From contig CAMDGV010000037.1 of NCBI GenBank assembly GCA_945898055.1, positions 1 to 43,019 on the forward strand: DNA of 43,019 nt, written 5' to 3'. Below the pieces are notes generated by a model. The model ran no database searches and was not told the DNA's origin. It saw only the letters and a program-made list of their open reading frames with translations. Source of the DNA: Akkermansia muciniphila (GTDB taxonomy: Bacteria; Verrucomicrobiota; Verrucomicrobiia; Limisphaerales; UBA9464). Made by a program: the position numbers and the translations under genes. Shown here one piece after another: positions 31,429 through 36,498 of this stretch (position 1 is the first letter of the stretch; every line of letters starts with the position of its first letter).

Positions 31429-32022
31429 ATGTATCTCACTTTAAAGCGCAGCGTGGCGCCTAGAAGAGGGCTCCGCTGGTGGGCGGTGCTGCCGATCCTG
31501 CTGGTCGCGTGGGCGCGGTTGCAGGCAGCCACCCAAACGCTGAGTTGGATTTCGCCGGCGGAGGACAGGCCCTTGATTTGGGGCAGAGCCTATCCGCTCA
31601 TGGCCCAGACGAGCAGCGGTCTGCCGGTGACCTTCCGGGTCTTGTCCAGTCCGGCCTTCATCGTCGACGGAGCAGTCACCGCCACCAATGCGGACACCAT
31701 CACGCAGGTGGCCGAACAGGCGGGCAGTCTCCAGTTCGACCTGGTTAGCCTTACTCGTAGCCTGAATCAGACCACACTTTCGTCTATGCGCCGGGGCGGT
31801 TACGAGACCAGCGGTTCTGCCTGCGCCGTGCAGGTGGTGGGGAAGCTTACCTACGTCGCCGCTGATACTGCGGGCCTGCAGTTGATCGAGGTGAGTGATC
31901 CGGCCAAAGCCCGTGAGGATCGGAGGCTACGACAGCCTCGGGTTGGCGCGGGGGTGCGGTTGGAGGGTGGACGCGCTCAGCGCGGTCTTCCGGCGGGATG
32001 CTGCGTTCCCAATCGACATTAA
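31429..32022 (+). pseudogene. Truncated, frameshifted LVIVD-repeat protein
   Basis: It starts with a signal peptide (LRWWAVLPILLVAWARLQAA) and an Ig-like domain (LPVTFRVLSSPAFIVDGAVT), as in long secreted LVIVD proteins. One LVIVD-type repeat is intact: GGYETSGSACAVQVVGKLTY then VAADTAGLQLIEVSDPAK. The next repeat (PVRIGGYDSLGLARG) is found in the +1 frame from about 31910, and VRLEGGRA returns to the first frame at about 31955, so two small indels flank it. Normal members continue for several hundred residues of repeats; here everything ends at 32022 and a strong terminator follows at 32093. A large internal deletion plus indels has killed the gene. Confidence 0.7.
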
Positions 32023-32092
32023 AACCGATCCGACTCGGATCTCATCTTTGTGGCGGGATTTATCTAATCGGTTGAGGAGTCTAATTGACGCC

Positions 32093-32116
32093 CGAGGGAA
32101 GTCTCCCTCGTTTTTT
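32093..32116 (+). terminator. Rho-independent terminator behind the LVIVD pseudogene
   Basis: CGAGGGA (32093-32099), loop AGTC, TCCCTCG (32104-32110), then six T. A perfect seven-base GC-rich stem. The same hairpin could serve the minus strand only poorly, because the T run is on this side. Confidence 0.85.
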
Positions 32117-32150
32117 CCAATGGTCACCGGCCTTTAATTCAATGGCAGAA

Positions 32151-33284
32151 TCAACCATCCTTGGTCGAGGTGCGGCGCGTCATGACCGGACTCTTGAGTT
32201 TTTGGTAGAGTTTAAGGCCGCGCTGGGCAGTAGAGGCCCATGTGAAATGGGTCTGCACATGGGCCTGTGCTTGGGCCCCTAGAGTCGCTGCGAGTTTGGG
32301 GTTGAAGACCAGTTCGTCGATACGGCGTCTTAATATTTCACGATCGTAGGGAGGAACTAGGTATCCAGTGACGCCCTCCACGACGAGTTCAGGTAGGCTG
32401 GTGATGCGGGTGACAATCACCGGTTTACCTGCGGCCATCCCTTCGAGACAAACTAGGCCGAGCAGTTCTGGTTTGGGGCCGGCAGGAATCGAGGGCTGGA
32501 GAACTACATTGGCACCAGTGTATTGCCGTCGAAGCTCCGAATCATCGGCATCCTCAATAAAAAGGACTTTTTTGCCAACCGCAGCCAGTTTGAGTTGTTG
32601 AAAATAGACTGGGTCATAAGGTCGCCCAACAATTCTCAAGGGAGTCTGAGGGGAGATGGATTCGATGAGTTCAAGAACTCCCTTATGACGTAGCAACCTG
32701 CCGACGAAGAGTGCGTAGCCTTCAAAGCGAGGGGTAGAATTGCTGTGAAGAGCGTGATCGGCACCGCCGAAGAGGAGGGTTGACGGTTGACTGTAACCTG
32801 GCAGTTGAGTCGCCGCATAGGCGGAAAGGTGGGCTATTCCATGGGCCCAGCGATAGAGTCCCCGTTGAAACCCTTGGTAGATGAGCCGGGTCGAAAGGCA
32901 AGGAGCCCCGCCACCAACGTCGGTGAGGACGACTTTTTGGCCACGAATGAGGGCCGAGAGCATGAGTAAATCAGCGGGTGGCGTGGGGAACCACATGATG
33001 TGGAATACATCATAGTGGGCCAATTCGTTCCAAGTAGATCGGGACGGATGAAGGATCCAATTTGGGTGAATCGAATGGACGGGAAAAGTACGAACTTCGA
33101 GCGATCCATCTTGGGTGGAAGTGGTTGCGGGAAGGGTACCAAAAAAGGCTAGAGTCGTTGGGGTAAATTTCGCGAGTGCTCGAGCATATTCGAGAGCGTA
33201 ACGCTCGCCCCCACCGGTGGTCTGGTGCCCTACATAGCAGGTGGGGGGCAGGATCAGTACACGAGATTGGGATGGAGGCTTCAG
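32151..33284 (-). CDS. GT4-type glycosyltransferase with probable CTG start
   Basis: The product has 377 residues if read from the CTG at 33284. Early residues VLILPPTCYVGHQTTGGGER are the N-terminal Rossmann strand and glycine loop of GT4 enzymes. The C-terminal domain has ALFVGRLLRHKGVLELI, LRIVGRP, and the nucleotide-sugar binding motif PELLGLVCLEGMAAGKPVIV with the conserved E-x7-E pair. No ATG, GTG or TTG exists in this frame between the preceding stop and 33023, where a TTG would delete the first 87 residues including the glycine loop. The CTG overlaps the Sua5 stop codon as CTGA, exactly where ATGA coupling is usual. It probably transfers a sugar from a nucleotide donor to a glycan or lipid; the acceptor is unknown. 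Confidence 0.75.
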   Translation of the reverse strand: MKPPSQSRVLILPPTCYVGHQTTGGGERYALEYARALAKFTPTTLAFFGTLPATTSTQDGSLEVRTFPVHSIHPNWILHPSRSTWNELAHYDVFHIMWFPTPPADLLMLSALIRGQKVVLTDVGGGAPCLSTRLIYQGFQRGLYRWAHGIAHLSAYAATQLPGYSQPSTLLFGGADHALHSNSTPRFEGYALFVGRLLRHKGVLELIESISPQTPLRIVGRPYDPVYFQQLKLAAVGKKVLFIEDADDSELRRQYTGANVVLQPSIPAGPKPELLGLVCLEGMAAGKPVIVTRITSLPELVVEGVTGYLVPPYDREILRRRIDELVFNPKLAATLGAQAQAHVQTHFTWASTAQRGLKLYQKLKSPVMTRRTSTKDG

Positions 33285-34324
33285 GCGTAGTTGAGTGAAG
33301 TGGGAGACGACGAAGCCCGCGCGAGCCGATCCCTAATACCTTCCCATTCCGGTGCGGTTGGAACGGATTCAATCACAATCAGCGCGGCATTCAATTGATC
33401 GCAGGCGTGCAAATATCCGAACAAGGCGCGAGCAAAGGCTTCGGGATCGTCGGGAATAAAGGAAGTCTGTGGGAAGAGAGAGAGAGAGGGGATTCGTGTA
33501 TGAGCAAGAATATGGATACGGTCTTTGGGGAAATTGGAGTCAGCTAGTTGGTGTACTAGATCCCCGTCGCTTGTCCAATTTAGTACCCTTAACGGGGCTC
33601 TTGGCGAGTAGTGGCGAGTGAGTTGACCTGGACTCCTGAGAATTGAGGTTGTTGTCGCATGGAGAGGAGATCCTGAATCCAAGGTAAAATCTTCGAGTGC
33701 CGTCTTAATTTGATCTGCGTGAATGATGCCGGGTCGTAAGATCCGTGCTGAGGGTCCTGTGACATCGATCACCGTGCTCTCAATTCCGACTGCACAGTGT
33801 CCCCCATCGACGATGAGGGGGATTCGTTCTCCAAGGCCTAAAATTACATGTTCCGCTGAGGTGGGTGAAAGAGAATTGGAGGGGTTGGCACTGGGAGCGG
33901 CCAGTGGAAATCCGCAGGCGCGAATCACGGCCTGCATGAACGGATGCGAGGGCCAACGGATGCCTACAGTGTTGCCGCCGGCTGAGACAGTCTCTGGTAT
34001 GCGAAAGGATCGAGGGAGAACGAGGGTCATTGGTCCTGGCCAGAAACGTGAGGCAAGGCGATCGGCGAGTGGTGGCCACTCGGTGCAGCATTCTCTCGCC
34101 ATCGTCGCGCTGGCGACATGGACGATTACTGGATTGTAAGCGGGTCGCCCTTTGACCGCATAGATTGCGGCGACGGCCGAGTTGGAGAAGGCATTAGCAG
34201 CGAGGCCGTAGACCGTCTCGGTTGGAAGCCCGACCACACCGCCCGATTTAAGGATATCGACGGCACGACGGACAGCCTCTGCAAACAGGGCAGGGGAGTG
34301 AGTAGTAAGAACCTCAGCAGGCAT
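33281..34324 (-). CDS. Sua5-type L-threonylcarbamoyladenylate synthase
   Basis: The product has 347 residues, the length of the two-domain Sua5 form rather than the short TsaC/YrdC form. The YrdC domain (about 15-210) has GGVVGLPTETVYGLAANA, YAVKGRPAYNPVIVHV, PGPMTLVLP and PLAAPSANPSNSLSPTSAEH. The Sua5 domain follows after SPGQLTRHYSPRAPL, the characteristic linker that closes the active site. The enzyme makes threonylcarbamoyl-AMP from threonine, bicarbonate and ATP in the cytoplasm, the first step of the universal t6A37 tRNA modification. Its TGA overlaps the glycosyltransferase start (CTGA). The other t6A genes (tsaD, tsaB, tsaE) are not in the window. The ATG is at 34324. Confidence 0.92.
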   Translation of the reverse strand: MPAEVLTTHSPALFAEAVRRAVDILKSGGVVGLPTETVYGLAANAFSNSAVAAIYAVKGRPAYNPVIVHVASATMARECCTEWPPLADRLASRFWPGPMTLVLPRSFRIPETVSAGGNTVGIRWPSHPFMQAVIRACGFPLAAPSANPSNSLSPTSAEHVILGLGERIPLIVDGGHCAVGIESTVIDVTGPSARILRPGIIHADQIKTALEDFTLDSGSPLHATTTSILRSPGQLTRHYSPRAPLRVLNWTSDGDLVHQLADSNFPKDRIHILAHTRIPSLSLFPQTSFIPDDPEAFARALFGYLHACDQLNAALIVIESVPTAPEWEGIRDRLARASSSPTSLNYA

Positions 34325-34400
34325 CGGTTGGAGTAAGACTAGCGAAGTAAAATTTTTGGGGAAATGAGAATGCGCGCACCTTTTTAAGGCTCGATAAGTG

Positions 34401-34425
34401 AGTCGGAGAGCTAGGGGCAGGCTAG
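34401..34425 (+). repeat. AGTCCGAGAGCG-type repeat, copy A
   Basis: AGTCGGAGAGCTAGGGGCAG plus GCTAG. It shares AGTC-GAGAGC and AGG-CAGGCTAG with copies B and C, and lies just upstream of the Sua5 gene. Confidence 0.7.
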
Positions 34426-34426
34426 C

Positions 34427-34457
34427 AGTCCGAGAGCGGGAGCTAGGGACAGGCTAG
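34427..34457 (+). repeat. AGTCCGAGAGCG-type repeat, copy B
   Basis: AGTCCGAGAGCGGGAGCTAG followed by GGACAGGCTAG; directly behind copy A and directly ahead of the IS630 relic. Confidence 0.75.
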
Positions 34458-34513
34458 AGCATTTTAAATAAAACTTTAGCCAGATTCGCTTGATTGGTCG
34501 CTGCGGTGGGGGG

Positions 34514-34846
34514 AAGACGCTGTCGCTGGACCTGCGGGAGAGGATCGTGACGGGCTACAATGCGCGGCAGGGCACGAGGGAAGAGGTTGCCCGGCGCTTC
34601 GGGGTATCGGTCGGCATGATGAAGAAGCTGCAGCAGCGGCGGCGGACCAACGAACTGGGCCACCGCCACCGTTTCCGGGCGGAAGGTCATGATCTTGCCC
34701 GAGTATTGGGATGGACTCGGGGCGCTGGTCGCCGCCCAACCCGACCTGACCCTAGCCCAGATCAAGGAGAAGCTGGCGATGCCCTGCACGGTGCAGGCCG
34801 CGCACCACGCGCTCGTCGCCCTCGGGCTGACCTATAAAAAAGGGAC
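34514..34846 (+). pseudogene. IS630-type transposase remnant (HTH half)
   Basis: One frame reads KTLSLDLRERIVTGYNARQG then TREEVARRFGVSVGMMKKLQ, and a second frame from 34689 reads PEYWDGLGALVAAQPDLTLA then LAMPCTVQAAHHALVALGLT and YKK. Together these are the N-terminal HTH part of an IS630-type transposase with one frameshift near 34683. All catalytic parts are gone. It is a different lineage from the full element at 27531. The remnant is bracketed by repeat copies B and C. Confidence 0.75.
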
Positions 34847-34871
34847 AGTCCGAGAGCGAGGGACAGGCTAG
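34847..34871 (+). repeat. AGTCCGAGAGCG-type repeat, copy C
   Basis: AGTCCGAGAGCGAGGGACAG plus GCTAG; it begins just after the IS630 relic and ends 11 bases before the DUF1501 stop codon. Confidence 0.75.
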
Positions 34872-34881
34872 TAGGGATAGG

Positions 34882-36498
34882 TCAGATGATATCGGGTTCC
34901 CCAGTGACGTGGACTCCATCGGCGGCTTGTTGACCGCCAGAGAATAGATGTTCTTTGGAGTCTGAATAACCAGGAATAATCCGCTTGAGTTGTTCTGGAG
35001 TGGCTCCGAGATGGTCACGGATGAGTTTGCCCATAACCGAACGGAAGTCGGTGGCTCTTTGCAGGTAACGTCCGGAGCTTTGAAATAAAGTGCCCTTCAT
35101 TCCTGTTTGCCAAGGGACCGGATCAGTCGGGCCGCAATTGAAAACACCACTGCGAGAGACAGTCCCGAGGACATCGGCGCGGAACCCTTTAATAGCTCCA
35201 CCGGCGGCATACATAACACTGGCTTCGGCATGGTCAGTGCCATTGTCTGCATTCTCGAGCGTGGTCCGGCCAAACTCAGAGAGAGTAACCACGACCAGAT
35301 CGTCCCAACGGCATTTATCGGCGTAGGCCTTAAAATATTTACGCAAGGCATAGACTGACCATCCGACCCGACGCAAAAGATTGGCGTGTTGTCCGAAGAC
35401 ACCGCCCTGTTCGCTGTGCGTGTCCCAGCCGTCGATTTGTGTTCCGGCGACGATGGCATCGGTTTTATTTAGAACCAGAGCGGCTGACTTGAGTTGGTTA
35501 AAGAATCCGTAAGCGGATGAAGGGACGACGTAGCCTGGATTGCCAGTGCCACCCAATCCAGCACCGTTTTTCTCGTTGGTTGTGGGGAAGAGAAAGTACG
35601 GTTTTTTTCCGTCCGTTTTTTCATCATCGACAAAAGTATTGCCAGCTTCGCTGAAATCGAGCGACGCGAAGATGTCAAGCGTTCGGGCCATATTGGAGTA
35701 CTGTTGCTGAAGCATCTCGCGGTTCGCTTTGGAAGCAAAAGGCGCCGCATTAGCCGCACCGAGCGCCCGAGCCATTTTTAGATTTCCTTCGACATTATTA
35801 GGAACGCCGAGGAGATCGTAGCGGGTGGGGTCGGAGATATTGGTCATGGCAGCCCGAGAGCCACGGAGCGAAAGGGGTAAGGAGCTTTGGAAGGAAACGC
35901 CAGTGAGAGAATTAGAGGAAGAAAGACCCGACTCGTGCATAGCTCTATAAAGGAGCCCATCGCGGATATCGGAATTACGTGGAGCACCAGTTTCCCAATA
36001 GCTCTGAGAATCGAAATGAGAACGAGATTGTCGAGGATAACCGACCCGATGAATGAGGGCGACTTCCCCTGCATTGTAGGCTGGAACAAGGTATTTGAGA
36101 GAGGGATGAATGCCGGCGAAGCCATTGCCGAGTGGGATCGAGTAAGGGTAATCGAAGGAACCTCCATTGGCTCCGGCTTGAGGGAAAAGAGCTGGTCCCC
36201 GGCGGTTCCACGTTTCTGCGGGATCGACCGGGATGGCCAGACTATCGCGGATGCCGGGTCCGTAGGCTGAATCTCCGTGGGGAATGATATTATTCAGACC
36301 GTCATTGGCACCGCGCAGAAAGATAAAGAGGAGTTTTTTGACCCGACCGTTGGCATTGGGACGTCCGATGGTGCCTTCAGCGAGAGCTTTTTGCACAAAG
36401 ATAGGGACTGAACTGAGGCAACCCATGGCTGCTGTGGCGGCCATACCGGCGGAGGTTCCGAGGAAAGAACGGCGGGTCAGAATGTTGGGCGTATTCAT
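34882..36498 (-). CDS. DUF1501 family exported protein
   Basis: The product has 538 residues. A Tat signal is visible (LTRRSFLGTSAGMAATAAMG), consistent with folding before export. DUF1501 landmarks include KKLLFIFLRGANDGLNNIIP, SRSHFDSQSYWETG, GWDTHSEQGG and VVVTLSEFGRTTLENADNGT followed by DHAEASVMYAAGGAIKG. The fold is related to alkaline phosphatase/sulfatase-like enzymes with conserved Asp and His residues, but the reaction is not known. It follows the DUF1800 gene after 34 bases, the normal pairing in Verrucomicrobiota, Planctomycetota and many proteobacteria, and is the last gene of the three-gene cluster. It is probably co-transcribed with it. Confidence 0.92.
   Translation of the reverse strand: MNTPNILTRRSFLGTSAGMAATAAMGCLSSVPIFVQKALAEGTIGRPNANGRVKKLLFIFLRGANDGLNNIIPHGDSAYGPGIRDSLAIPVDPAETWNRRGPALFPQAGANGGSFDYPYSIPLGNGFAGIHPSLKYLVPAYNAGEVALIHRVGYPRQSRSHFDSQSYWETGAPRNSDIRDGLLYRAMHESGLSSSNSLTGVSFQSSLPLSLRGSRAAMTNISDPTRYDLLGVPNNVEGNLKMARALGAANAAPFASKANREMLQQQYSNMARTLDIFASLDFSEAGNTFVDDEKTDGKKPYFLFPTTNEKNGAGLGGTGNPGYVVPSSAYGFFNQLKSAALVLNKTDAIVAGTQIDGWDTHSEQGGVFGQHANLLRRVGWSVYALRKYFKAYADKCRWDDLVVVTLSEFGRTTLENADNGTDHAEASVMYAAGGAIKGFRADVLGTVSRSGVFNCGPTDPVPWQTGMKGTLFQSSGRYLQRATDFRSVMGKLIRDHLGATPEQLKRIIPGYSDSKEHLFSGGQQAADGVHVTGEPDII

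What the first reader, a model, noticed from the sequence alone, without database searches (positions are those of the whole stretch)
32151..33284. Glycosyltransferase that appears to start at CTG inside the Sua5 stop codon
The frame holding the conserved N-terminal glycine loop has no ATG, GTG or TTG from its preceding stop (near 33335) down to 33023. The family-like N-terminus begins at CTG 33284, which overlaps the Sua5 TGA as CTGA, the position where ATGA coupling is normal. Non-standard CTG starts are rare, and coupling by termination-reinitiation could make one workable.
Basis: partly seen in the sequence, partly recalled or inferred. Interest (0 to 1): 0.55.

Follow-up and report, generated by a model that had tools for sequence, protein, structure and literature searches.

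The report
Glycosyltransferase gene apparently starting at CTG
A sugar-transferring enzyme gene in an uncultured bacterium has no ordinary start codon where its examined relatives have one; the only usable codon there is a rare CTG that overlaps the stop of the gene before it, probably a weak, coupled start, though a sequence error is not excluded.

Summary
On the minus strand the GT4 glycosyltransferase frame opens after TAG 33333-33335 and has no ATG, GTG or TTG before TTG 33023. The only start-type codon of table 11 before the conserved first strand is CTG 33284, overlapping the Sua5 TGA as CTGA. In 20 of 20 family relatives a canonical start lies at the matching place: the conserved Arg/Lys is residue 6-18 there and residue 8 here. 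The stretch between CTG and TTG 33023 holds GGGERY, identical in 21 of 21, and is normally conserved. So translation should enter near 33284. How is inferred: most likely low-level re-initiation by ribosomes ending Sua5. Cautions: residues 1-7 are not conserved, so alignment cannot fix the exact codon; the C is Sua5's wobble base and common there (8 of 16 TGA-ended relatives); three silent changes (GCC to GCA/GCG/GCT) would give a canonical start. A wrong or strain-specific base, or a recently lost start, stays open: none of 18 genus mates shows the base. Rare and plausible, not a new kind of thing. Interest 0.3.

The parts
32151..33284 (-). GT4-type glycosyltransferase coding sequence if started at CTG 33284 (377 residues)
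   Evidence: open frame; PF00534, E 2.5e-26; orthologues
33282..33284 (-). candidate CTG start codon, the only table-11 start-type codon between the upstream in-frame stop and the conserved first strand
33281..33283 (-). TGA stop of Sua5, overlapping the CTG as CTGA (-4 overlap)
33281..34324 (-). Sua5 / L-threonylcarbamoyladenylate synthase, 347 aa, ATG start
   Evidence: PF01300 and PF03481; TIGR00057
33333..33335 (-). TAG that closes the glycosyltransferase frame upstream
33198..33215 (-). GGGERY motif (residues 24-29), identical in 21 of 21 aligned orthologues including this one
33021..33023 (-). TTG, first canonical start codon in the frame; would give 290 aa without residues 1-87
33249..33257 (-). 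CTG-ATC-CTG, next start-type codons (residues 10-12), inside the predicted first beta strand (residues 9-12, low-confidence part of the model)

Best explanation
The glycosyltransferase is a real gene whose translation enters at CTG 33284. Ribosomes that finish Sua5 at the overlapping TGA re-initiate with initiator tRNA on the CUG (CUGA), making a full-length enzyme at a low level tied to Sua5 translation. Shown: no canonical start, the approximate place of the N-terminus by homology, intact frame, normal conservation of residues 8-87. Inferred: that the base is right, that CUG is the codon used, that re-initiation rather than fresh initiation does it, and that output is low.
For: Only start-type codon in the place. 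In 20 of 20 family relatives a canonical start precedes the conserved strand: the conserved Arg/Lys is residue 6-18 (residue 7 in 10 of 20), here residue 8. In 5 of 6 further order-level loci (L227-L231) an ATG lies 22 or 24 codons before GGGER; CTG is 23 before it; the sixth (L232) has no exact GGGER and was not placed. GGGERY lies upstream of TTG 33023 and is identical in 21 of 21. Residues 8-87 are as conserved, relative to the rest, as in pairs of relatives (mean residual -0.015, sd 0.068) and differ from the 60% relative mostly at silent sites (pS 0.81, pN 0.33). NTGA overlaps near coding onsets occur in this genome (ATGA 8, GTGA 2, CTGA 2 in the sample), and in the two relatives checked, L039 and L044, the same gene starts at GTGA over the stop of an upstream UDG-superfamily gene. 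No Shine-Dalgarno excess before starts in this genome (26 of 143 against 26 of 143 in a control stretch; starts picked by script), so the lack of one here says nothing against the site. Literature passages: re-initiation at stop/start overlaps, and from non-AUG codons with matching mutant initiator tRNAs, in E. coli (PMC2268962).
Against: CUG is a very poor start: 0.024% of bacterial start codons and 0.86% of AUG output (PMC11497404 passage citing Hecht et al. 2017); it was not enriched in a mycobacterial selection (PMC4633059 passage). Residues 1-7 are not conserved (0-2 of 5-7 identical to any relative), so homology cannot fix the exact codon, and the coding signal shows no step there. GCC to GCA, GCG or GCT would be silent in Sua5 and give ATG, GTG or TTG, so selection for expression could easily have removed the C. 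CTGA at Sua5 stops is common in relatives without this gene; in the four read further the CTG frame soon closes and the next gene starts about 200 nt on. Single draft assembly, no reads seen.
Confidence: 0.55

Rival explanations
1. The base at 33284 is wrong in the assembly or is a minor strain variant; the real gene starts at ATG, GTG or TTG at the same spot with an ordinary NTGA overlap.
For: One draft assembly (136 contigs; no 16S found), no reads seen; 20 of 20 family relatives have a canonical start there; every alternative base is silent in Sua5 (sequence).
Against: A consensus error at one named base is rare a priori (general knowledge, nothing measured here). The frame and Sua5 are otherwise clean.
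Confidence: 0.2
2. The start was lost recently (or when the gene came to lie behind Sua5) and the gene is silent or decaying.
For: Of 18 genus mates only G008 has an orthologue (several of these assemblies are incomplete, 67-97%). A decayed copy of its 3' end with 4 in-frame stops lies on contig C50, so the gene seems dispensable in the lineage. The C is Sua5's wobble base.
Against: The frame is open over 393 codons and residues 8-87 show no excess of change; loss would have to be recent.
Confidence: 0.13
3. Translation starts at another non-canonical codon just downstream (CTG 33257, ATC 33254 or CTG 33251).
For: They are start-type codons in frame and keep the GGGERY motif.
Against: They fall after the Arg/Lys that each of the 20 relatives has inside the protein, in the predicted first strand, residues 9-12 (model confidence there only about 50), and do not touch the Sua5 stop.
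Confidence: 0.06
4. A frameshift (or stop suppression with a shift) near the end of Sua5 makes a Sua5-glycosyltransferase fusion.
For: The glycosyltransferase frame is open from 33332 and is the -1 frame of Sua5, so a shift in 33332-33281 would join them. A frameshifted fusion beside re-initiation was reported at a stop/start overlap in M. tuberculosis (PMC11260477 passages).
Against: No XXXYYYZ slippery heptamer in 33281-33340. Sua5 was not found near the gene in the 20 relatives (held flanks).
Confidence: 0.03
5. The protein starts at TTG 33023 (290 aa), the first canonical codon.
For: First canonical start in the frame.
Against: Removes residues 1-87: the invariant GGGERY and the predicted elements E9-12, H25-38, E43-49, E55-59, E62-71, E78-80 (mean pLDDT 63.7, about 50 over the first 30 residues). 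None of the 20 relatives needs a start there.
Confidence: 0.03

Closest known systems
-4 nt stop/start overlaps (ATGA, GTGA) with translational coupling by termination-reinitiation
   Same: Same four-base geometry and gene order; the mechanism is the one proposed here.
   Different: First base C instead of A or G. PMC10666635 names ATGA and GTGA for the -4 overlap; 'CTG' does not occur in its main text (term search and passages). No coupling shown here.
Rare CTG start codons of bacteria (genetic code table 11)
   Same: CTG as the only start-type codon at the homologous N-terminus.
   Different: No protein evidence. CUG is about 0.024% of bacterial starts (PMC11497404 passage).
GT4 glycosyltransferases (Pfam Glycos_transf_1)
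   Same: Profile match over the C-terminal domain and orthologues with the same N-terminal motif.
   Different: Start codon only. Substrate unknown; no NCBIfam curated cut-off reached among the 24 families listed.
UDG-glycosyltransferase pair of a related genus (L039, L044)
   Same: Same glycosyltransferase starting over the upstream gene's TGA in a -4 overlap.
   Different: GTGA, and the upstream gene is of the uracil-DNA glycosylase superfamily (PF03167), not Sua5.

Membership tests
GT4 glycosyltransferase (PF00534) | Profile match above the curated cut-off | tested here: met
   92.7 bits against cut-off 26.4
GT4 glycosyltransferase (PF00534) | N-terminal Rossmann half with glycine loop present in the translated product | tested here: inconclusive
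   Present only if translation enters at or near 33284: GGGERY at residues 24-29; strand 9-12 and helix 25-38 in a model whose first 30 residues have low confidence
-4 stop/start overlap pair | NTGA shared by upstream stop and downstream start, downstream gene in the right frame | tested here: met
   CTGA 33281-33284
-4 stop/start overlap pair | Canonical start codon in the overlap | tested here: not met
   CTG
-4 stop/start overlap pair | Downstream translation depends on upstream translation | not testable with these tools
   needs a reporter
CTG-initiated gene | No canonical start at the homologous N-terminus | tested here: met
CTG-initiated gene | Codon kept as CTG in related strains | tested here: inconclusive
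   Nearest relative G002 (91-94% nt) ends inside Sua5 at window 33756; G008 (60% aa) has no Sua5 there and starts at TTG or an upstream ATG
CTG-initiated gene | N-terminal peptide or initiating-ribosome footprint at CTG | not testable with these tools
   no expression data
Sua5 (YrdC plus Sua5 domain) | Both domains full length and normal end | tested here: met
   C-terminal tail within the range of relatives

The most novel reading that the evidence does not exclude
A naturally kept CUGA junction in which a start almost unusable for fresh initiation is fed only by terminating ribosomes, so that the enzyme is made at a small fixed fraction of Sua5, in a genome whose sampled starts show no Shine-Dalgarno signal; the wobble C is kept because a canonical start would make too much.
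Probability: 0.12. Interest if true: 0.5.

Novelty: new member of a known kind. Interest (0 to 1): 0.3.

Why it matters
A gene caller that accepts only ATG, GTG and TTG would begin this enzyme at TTG 33023 and lose its conserved N-terminal loop. If the CTG is real and used, it is a clean natural test of whether post-termination ribosomes relax start-codon choice: one base, silent in the upstream gene, separates CUG from AUG, GUG and UUG.

Tried and rejected
Idea that the genome uses CTG starts widely: in a sample of 441,019 bases (20 stretches of 19.9 kb plus the window, about 10% of 4.63 Mb) the other genes called (217 in all) gave lower scores for coding signal before the first canonical start, the only higher one in the cruder run being a poly-alanine frame. 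Of 12 NTGA overlaps near a coding onset 8 were ATG, 2 GTG and 2 CTG; the other CTG (L212) is followed at once by ATG. The caller was my own simple script and the overlaps are not proven starts, so this is a rough survey.

Idea that Sua5 had grown an extra tail by a junction with this gene: rejected, tails of similar length occur in relatives.

Idea that the 60% relative G008 has TTG over a stop in a homologous operon: rejected, no Sua5 is there, the TGA lies in a frame that by eye shows no gene, and an in-frame ATG lies upstream.

Hope that a close relative would show the base: G002 (94% nt over window 34847-36116, 91% over 33756-34421) ends inside Sua5 and showed no orthologue elsewhere. Metagenomes were not scanned (cap 0, not tried).

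Paper searches: none of the listed titles and abstract beginnings reports a bacterial CTGA re-initiation start; only the listed part of each result was seen (for example 20 of 1,643), in an open-licence library. An alternative CUG in Caulobacter dnaA gave a toeprint in vitro but was not used in vivo (PMC8443254 passages).

Full report
What is there. The window is the whole contig C37 of a 4.63-Mb, 136-contig draft genome in which no 16S gene was found; the three nearest named records are Verrucomicrobia MAGs. On the minus strand Sua5 (33281-34324, 347 aa, both Pfam domains complete) is followed by a GT4-type glycosyltransferase (PF00534, 92.7 bits). The glycosyltransferase frame opens after TAG 33333-33335 and runs without a stop to 32151. 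There is no ATG, GTG or TTG until TTG 33023. Of the start-type codons in table 11 only CTG 33284 lies between the TAG and the conserved first strand, and it shares its TG with the Sua5 TGA as CTGA.

Where the N-terminus belongs. Among 49 other genomes of the family, 20 hold an orthologue of 37-60% identity (L004, L033-L051), two of them cut at the C-terminal side by contig ends. For each I took the canonical start just upstream of the conserved RVLIL-like strand: ATG 10, GTG 8, TTG 1 and one that is TTG or a more upstream ATG. Counted from these starts, the Arg/Lys that aligns with Arg 8 is residue 6 to 18, residue 7 in 10 of 20. An order-level search (293 genomes, E up to 1e-40) added six loci; in five (L227-L231) an ATG lies 22 or 24 codons before GGGER, against 23 for the CTG here; the sixth (L232, 34% identity) has no exact GGGER and was not placed. 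GGGERY, residues 24-29, is identical in 21 of 21 sequences and lies upstream of TTG 33023. Residues 1-7, by contrast, are not conserved (0-2 of 5-7 identical to any relative), so the alignment gives the place, not the codon.

Has this N-terminus been translated? Identity over residues 8-87 is what the rest of the protein predicts (mean residual -0.015 over 18 pairs; standard deviation 0.068 over 153 pairs of relatives; the two cut sequences left out). Against the closest orthologue 0.81 of silent and 0.33 of replacement sites differ over residues 8-87, and 0.80 and 0.26 over 88-363. Silent sites are near saturation, so this shows past constraint, not current use. A model made from four sequences (mean pLDDT 63.7, about 50 over the first 30 residues) places strand 9-12, helix 25-38 and four further strands before residue 88. 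A product from TTG 33023 would lack them. A simple coding model shows no step at 33284.

How surprising is CTGA? Less than it looks. The C is the wobble base of Sua5's last codon (GCC, Ala). Of 29 Sua5 relatives, 28 could be read (L063 was mis-extended by my script; the same gene has C before TGA): 16 end in TGA, and C comes before it in 8. In four genus relatives whose downstream DNA I read, all with CTGA, the CTG frame soon closes and the next gene starts about 200 nt on. Sua5 was not found within the held flanks (about 0.2-1.5 kb) of the glycosyltransferase in any of the 20 relatives. In this genome's sample C comes before TGA in 33 of 94 genes. So the overlap by itself may be coincidence; the argument rests on the absence of any other start at the right place. 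It also cuts the other way: changing that C to A, G or T is silent in Sua5 and would give ATG, GTG or TTG, so a gene under strong selection for expression could easily have gained a better start.

Is it one of many? In 441 kb sampled (217 genes called by a simple Markov script) this gene ranks first for coding signal ahead of the first canonical start, by a modest margin (6.0 against 4.4), and second of 178 under a plainer codon model, behind a poly-alanine frame. Of 12 NTGA overlaps near coding onsets 8 were ATGA, 2 GTGA and 2 CTGA, the other CTGA having an ATG as its next codon. So nothing points to general use of CTG. Script-picked ATG starts in this sample show no Shine-Dalgarno excess (26 of 143 against 26 of 143 in a control stretch), in line with a report that lists some Verrucomicrobia among SD-scarce organisms (PMC10783764 passages). 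A site without such a sequence is therefore not odd here.

Mechanism. The best reading is re-initiation: the ribosome ends Sua5 at UGA, beside the CUG, and initiator tRNA pairs there before the ribosome leaves. Re-initiation at overlapping codons is established, and non-AUG re-initiation has been driven in E. coli with mutant initiator tRNAs (PMC2268962 passages). Initiation at CUG is poor (0.86% of AUG; 0.024% of bacterial starts; PMC11497404 passage citing Hecht 2017; that paper itself was not held). Output is thus expected to be low. An arrangement in relatives fits coupling: in L039 and L044, the two checked, the same glycosyltransferase starts at GTGA over the stop of a gene of the uracil-DNA glycosylase superfamily.

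What stays open. Only reads can tell whether the base is right. The nearest relative, G002, ends inside Sua5. The gene is patchy (an orthologue in 1 of 18 genus mates, several of them incomplete), and a decayed piece of a second copy, with four in-frame stops and an 81% match over 476 bp, lies on contig C50, so recent loss of the start in a dispensable gene is possible. No slippery heptamer supports a fusion.

Verdict. Observation confirmed; place of the N-terminus well supported; use of CTG plausible, about 0.55; ordinary in kind.

Noticed in passing
G000:C50:2096-2567 (L002, L175); matches window 32059-32529: A decayed second copy of the 3' end of this glycosyltransferase plus about 90 bp downstream (81% over 476 bp, 4 in-frame stops). 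A short frame next to it (L175 2634-2975) looks, from memory only, like an IS66 accessory gene.
   Followed up: partly
window 34422-34846: About 0.4 kb upstream of Sua5 is absent from the 91-94% identical relative G002 (contig C61); it holds a short frame with a transposase-like helix-turn-helix (recalled likeness, not tested), so it looks like an insertion.
   Followed up: partly
20 stretches L207-L226 plus window: No Shine-Dalgarno excess before script-picked ATG starts (26 of 143 against 26 of 143), with C-rich -2/-1 and A-rich +4 positions.
   Followed up: partly
L033, L034, L040, L043 upstream of the glycosyltransferase start: In these relatives the start codon sits just behind a GC-rich stretch and a run of T that looks like a terminator, so the gene may be leaderless or sit behind an attenuator. 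Not tested.
   Followed up: no
window 31972-32026; G000:C12:7400-7454; G000:C23:9243-9300: A 55-60 bp stretch just downstream of the glycosyltransferase recurs at 81-89% identity on two other contigs.
   Followed up: no
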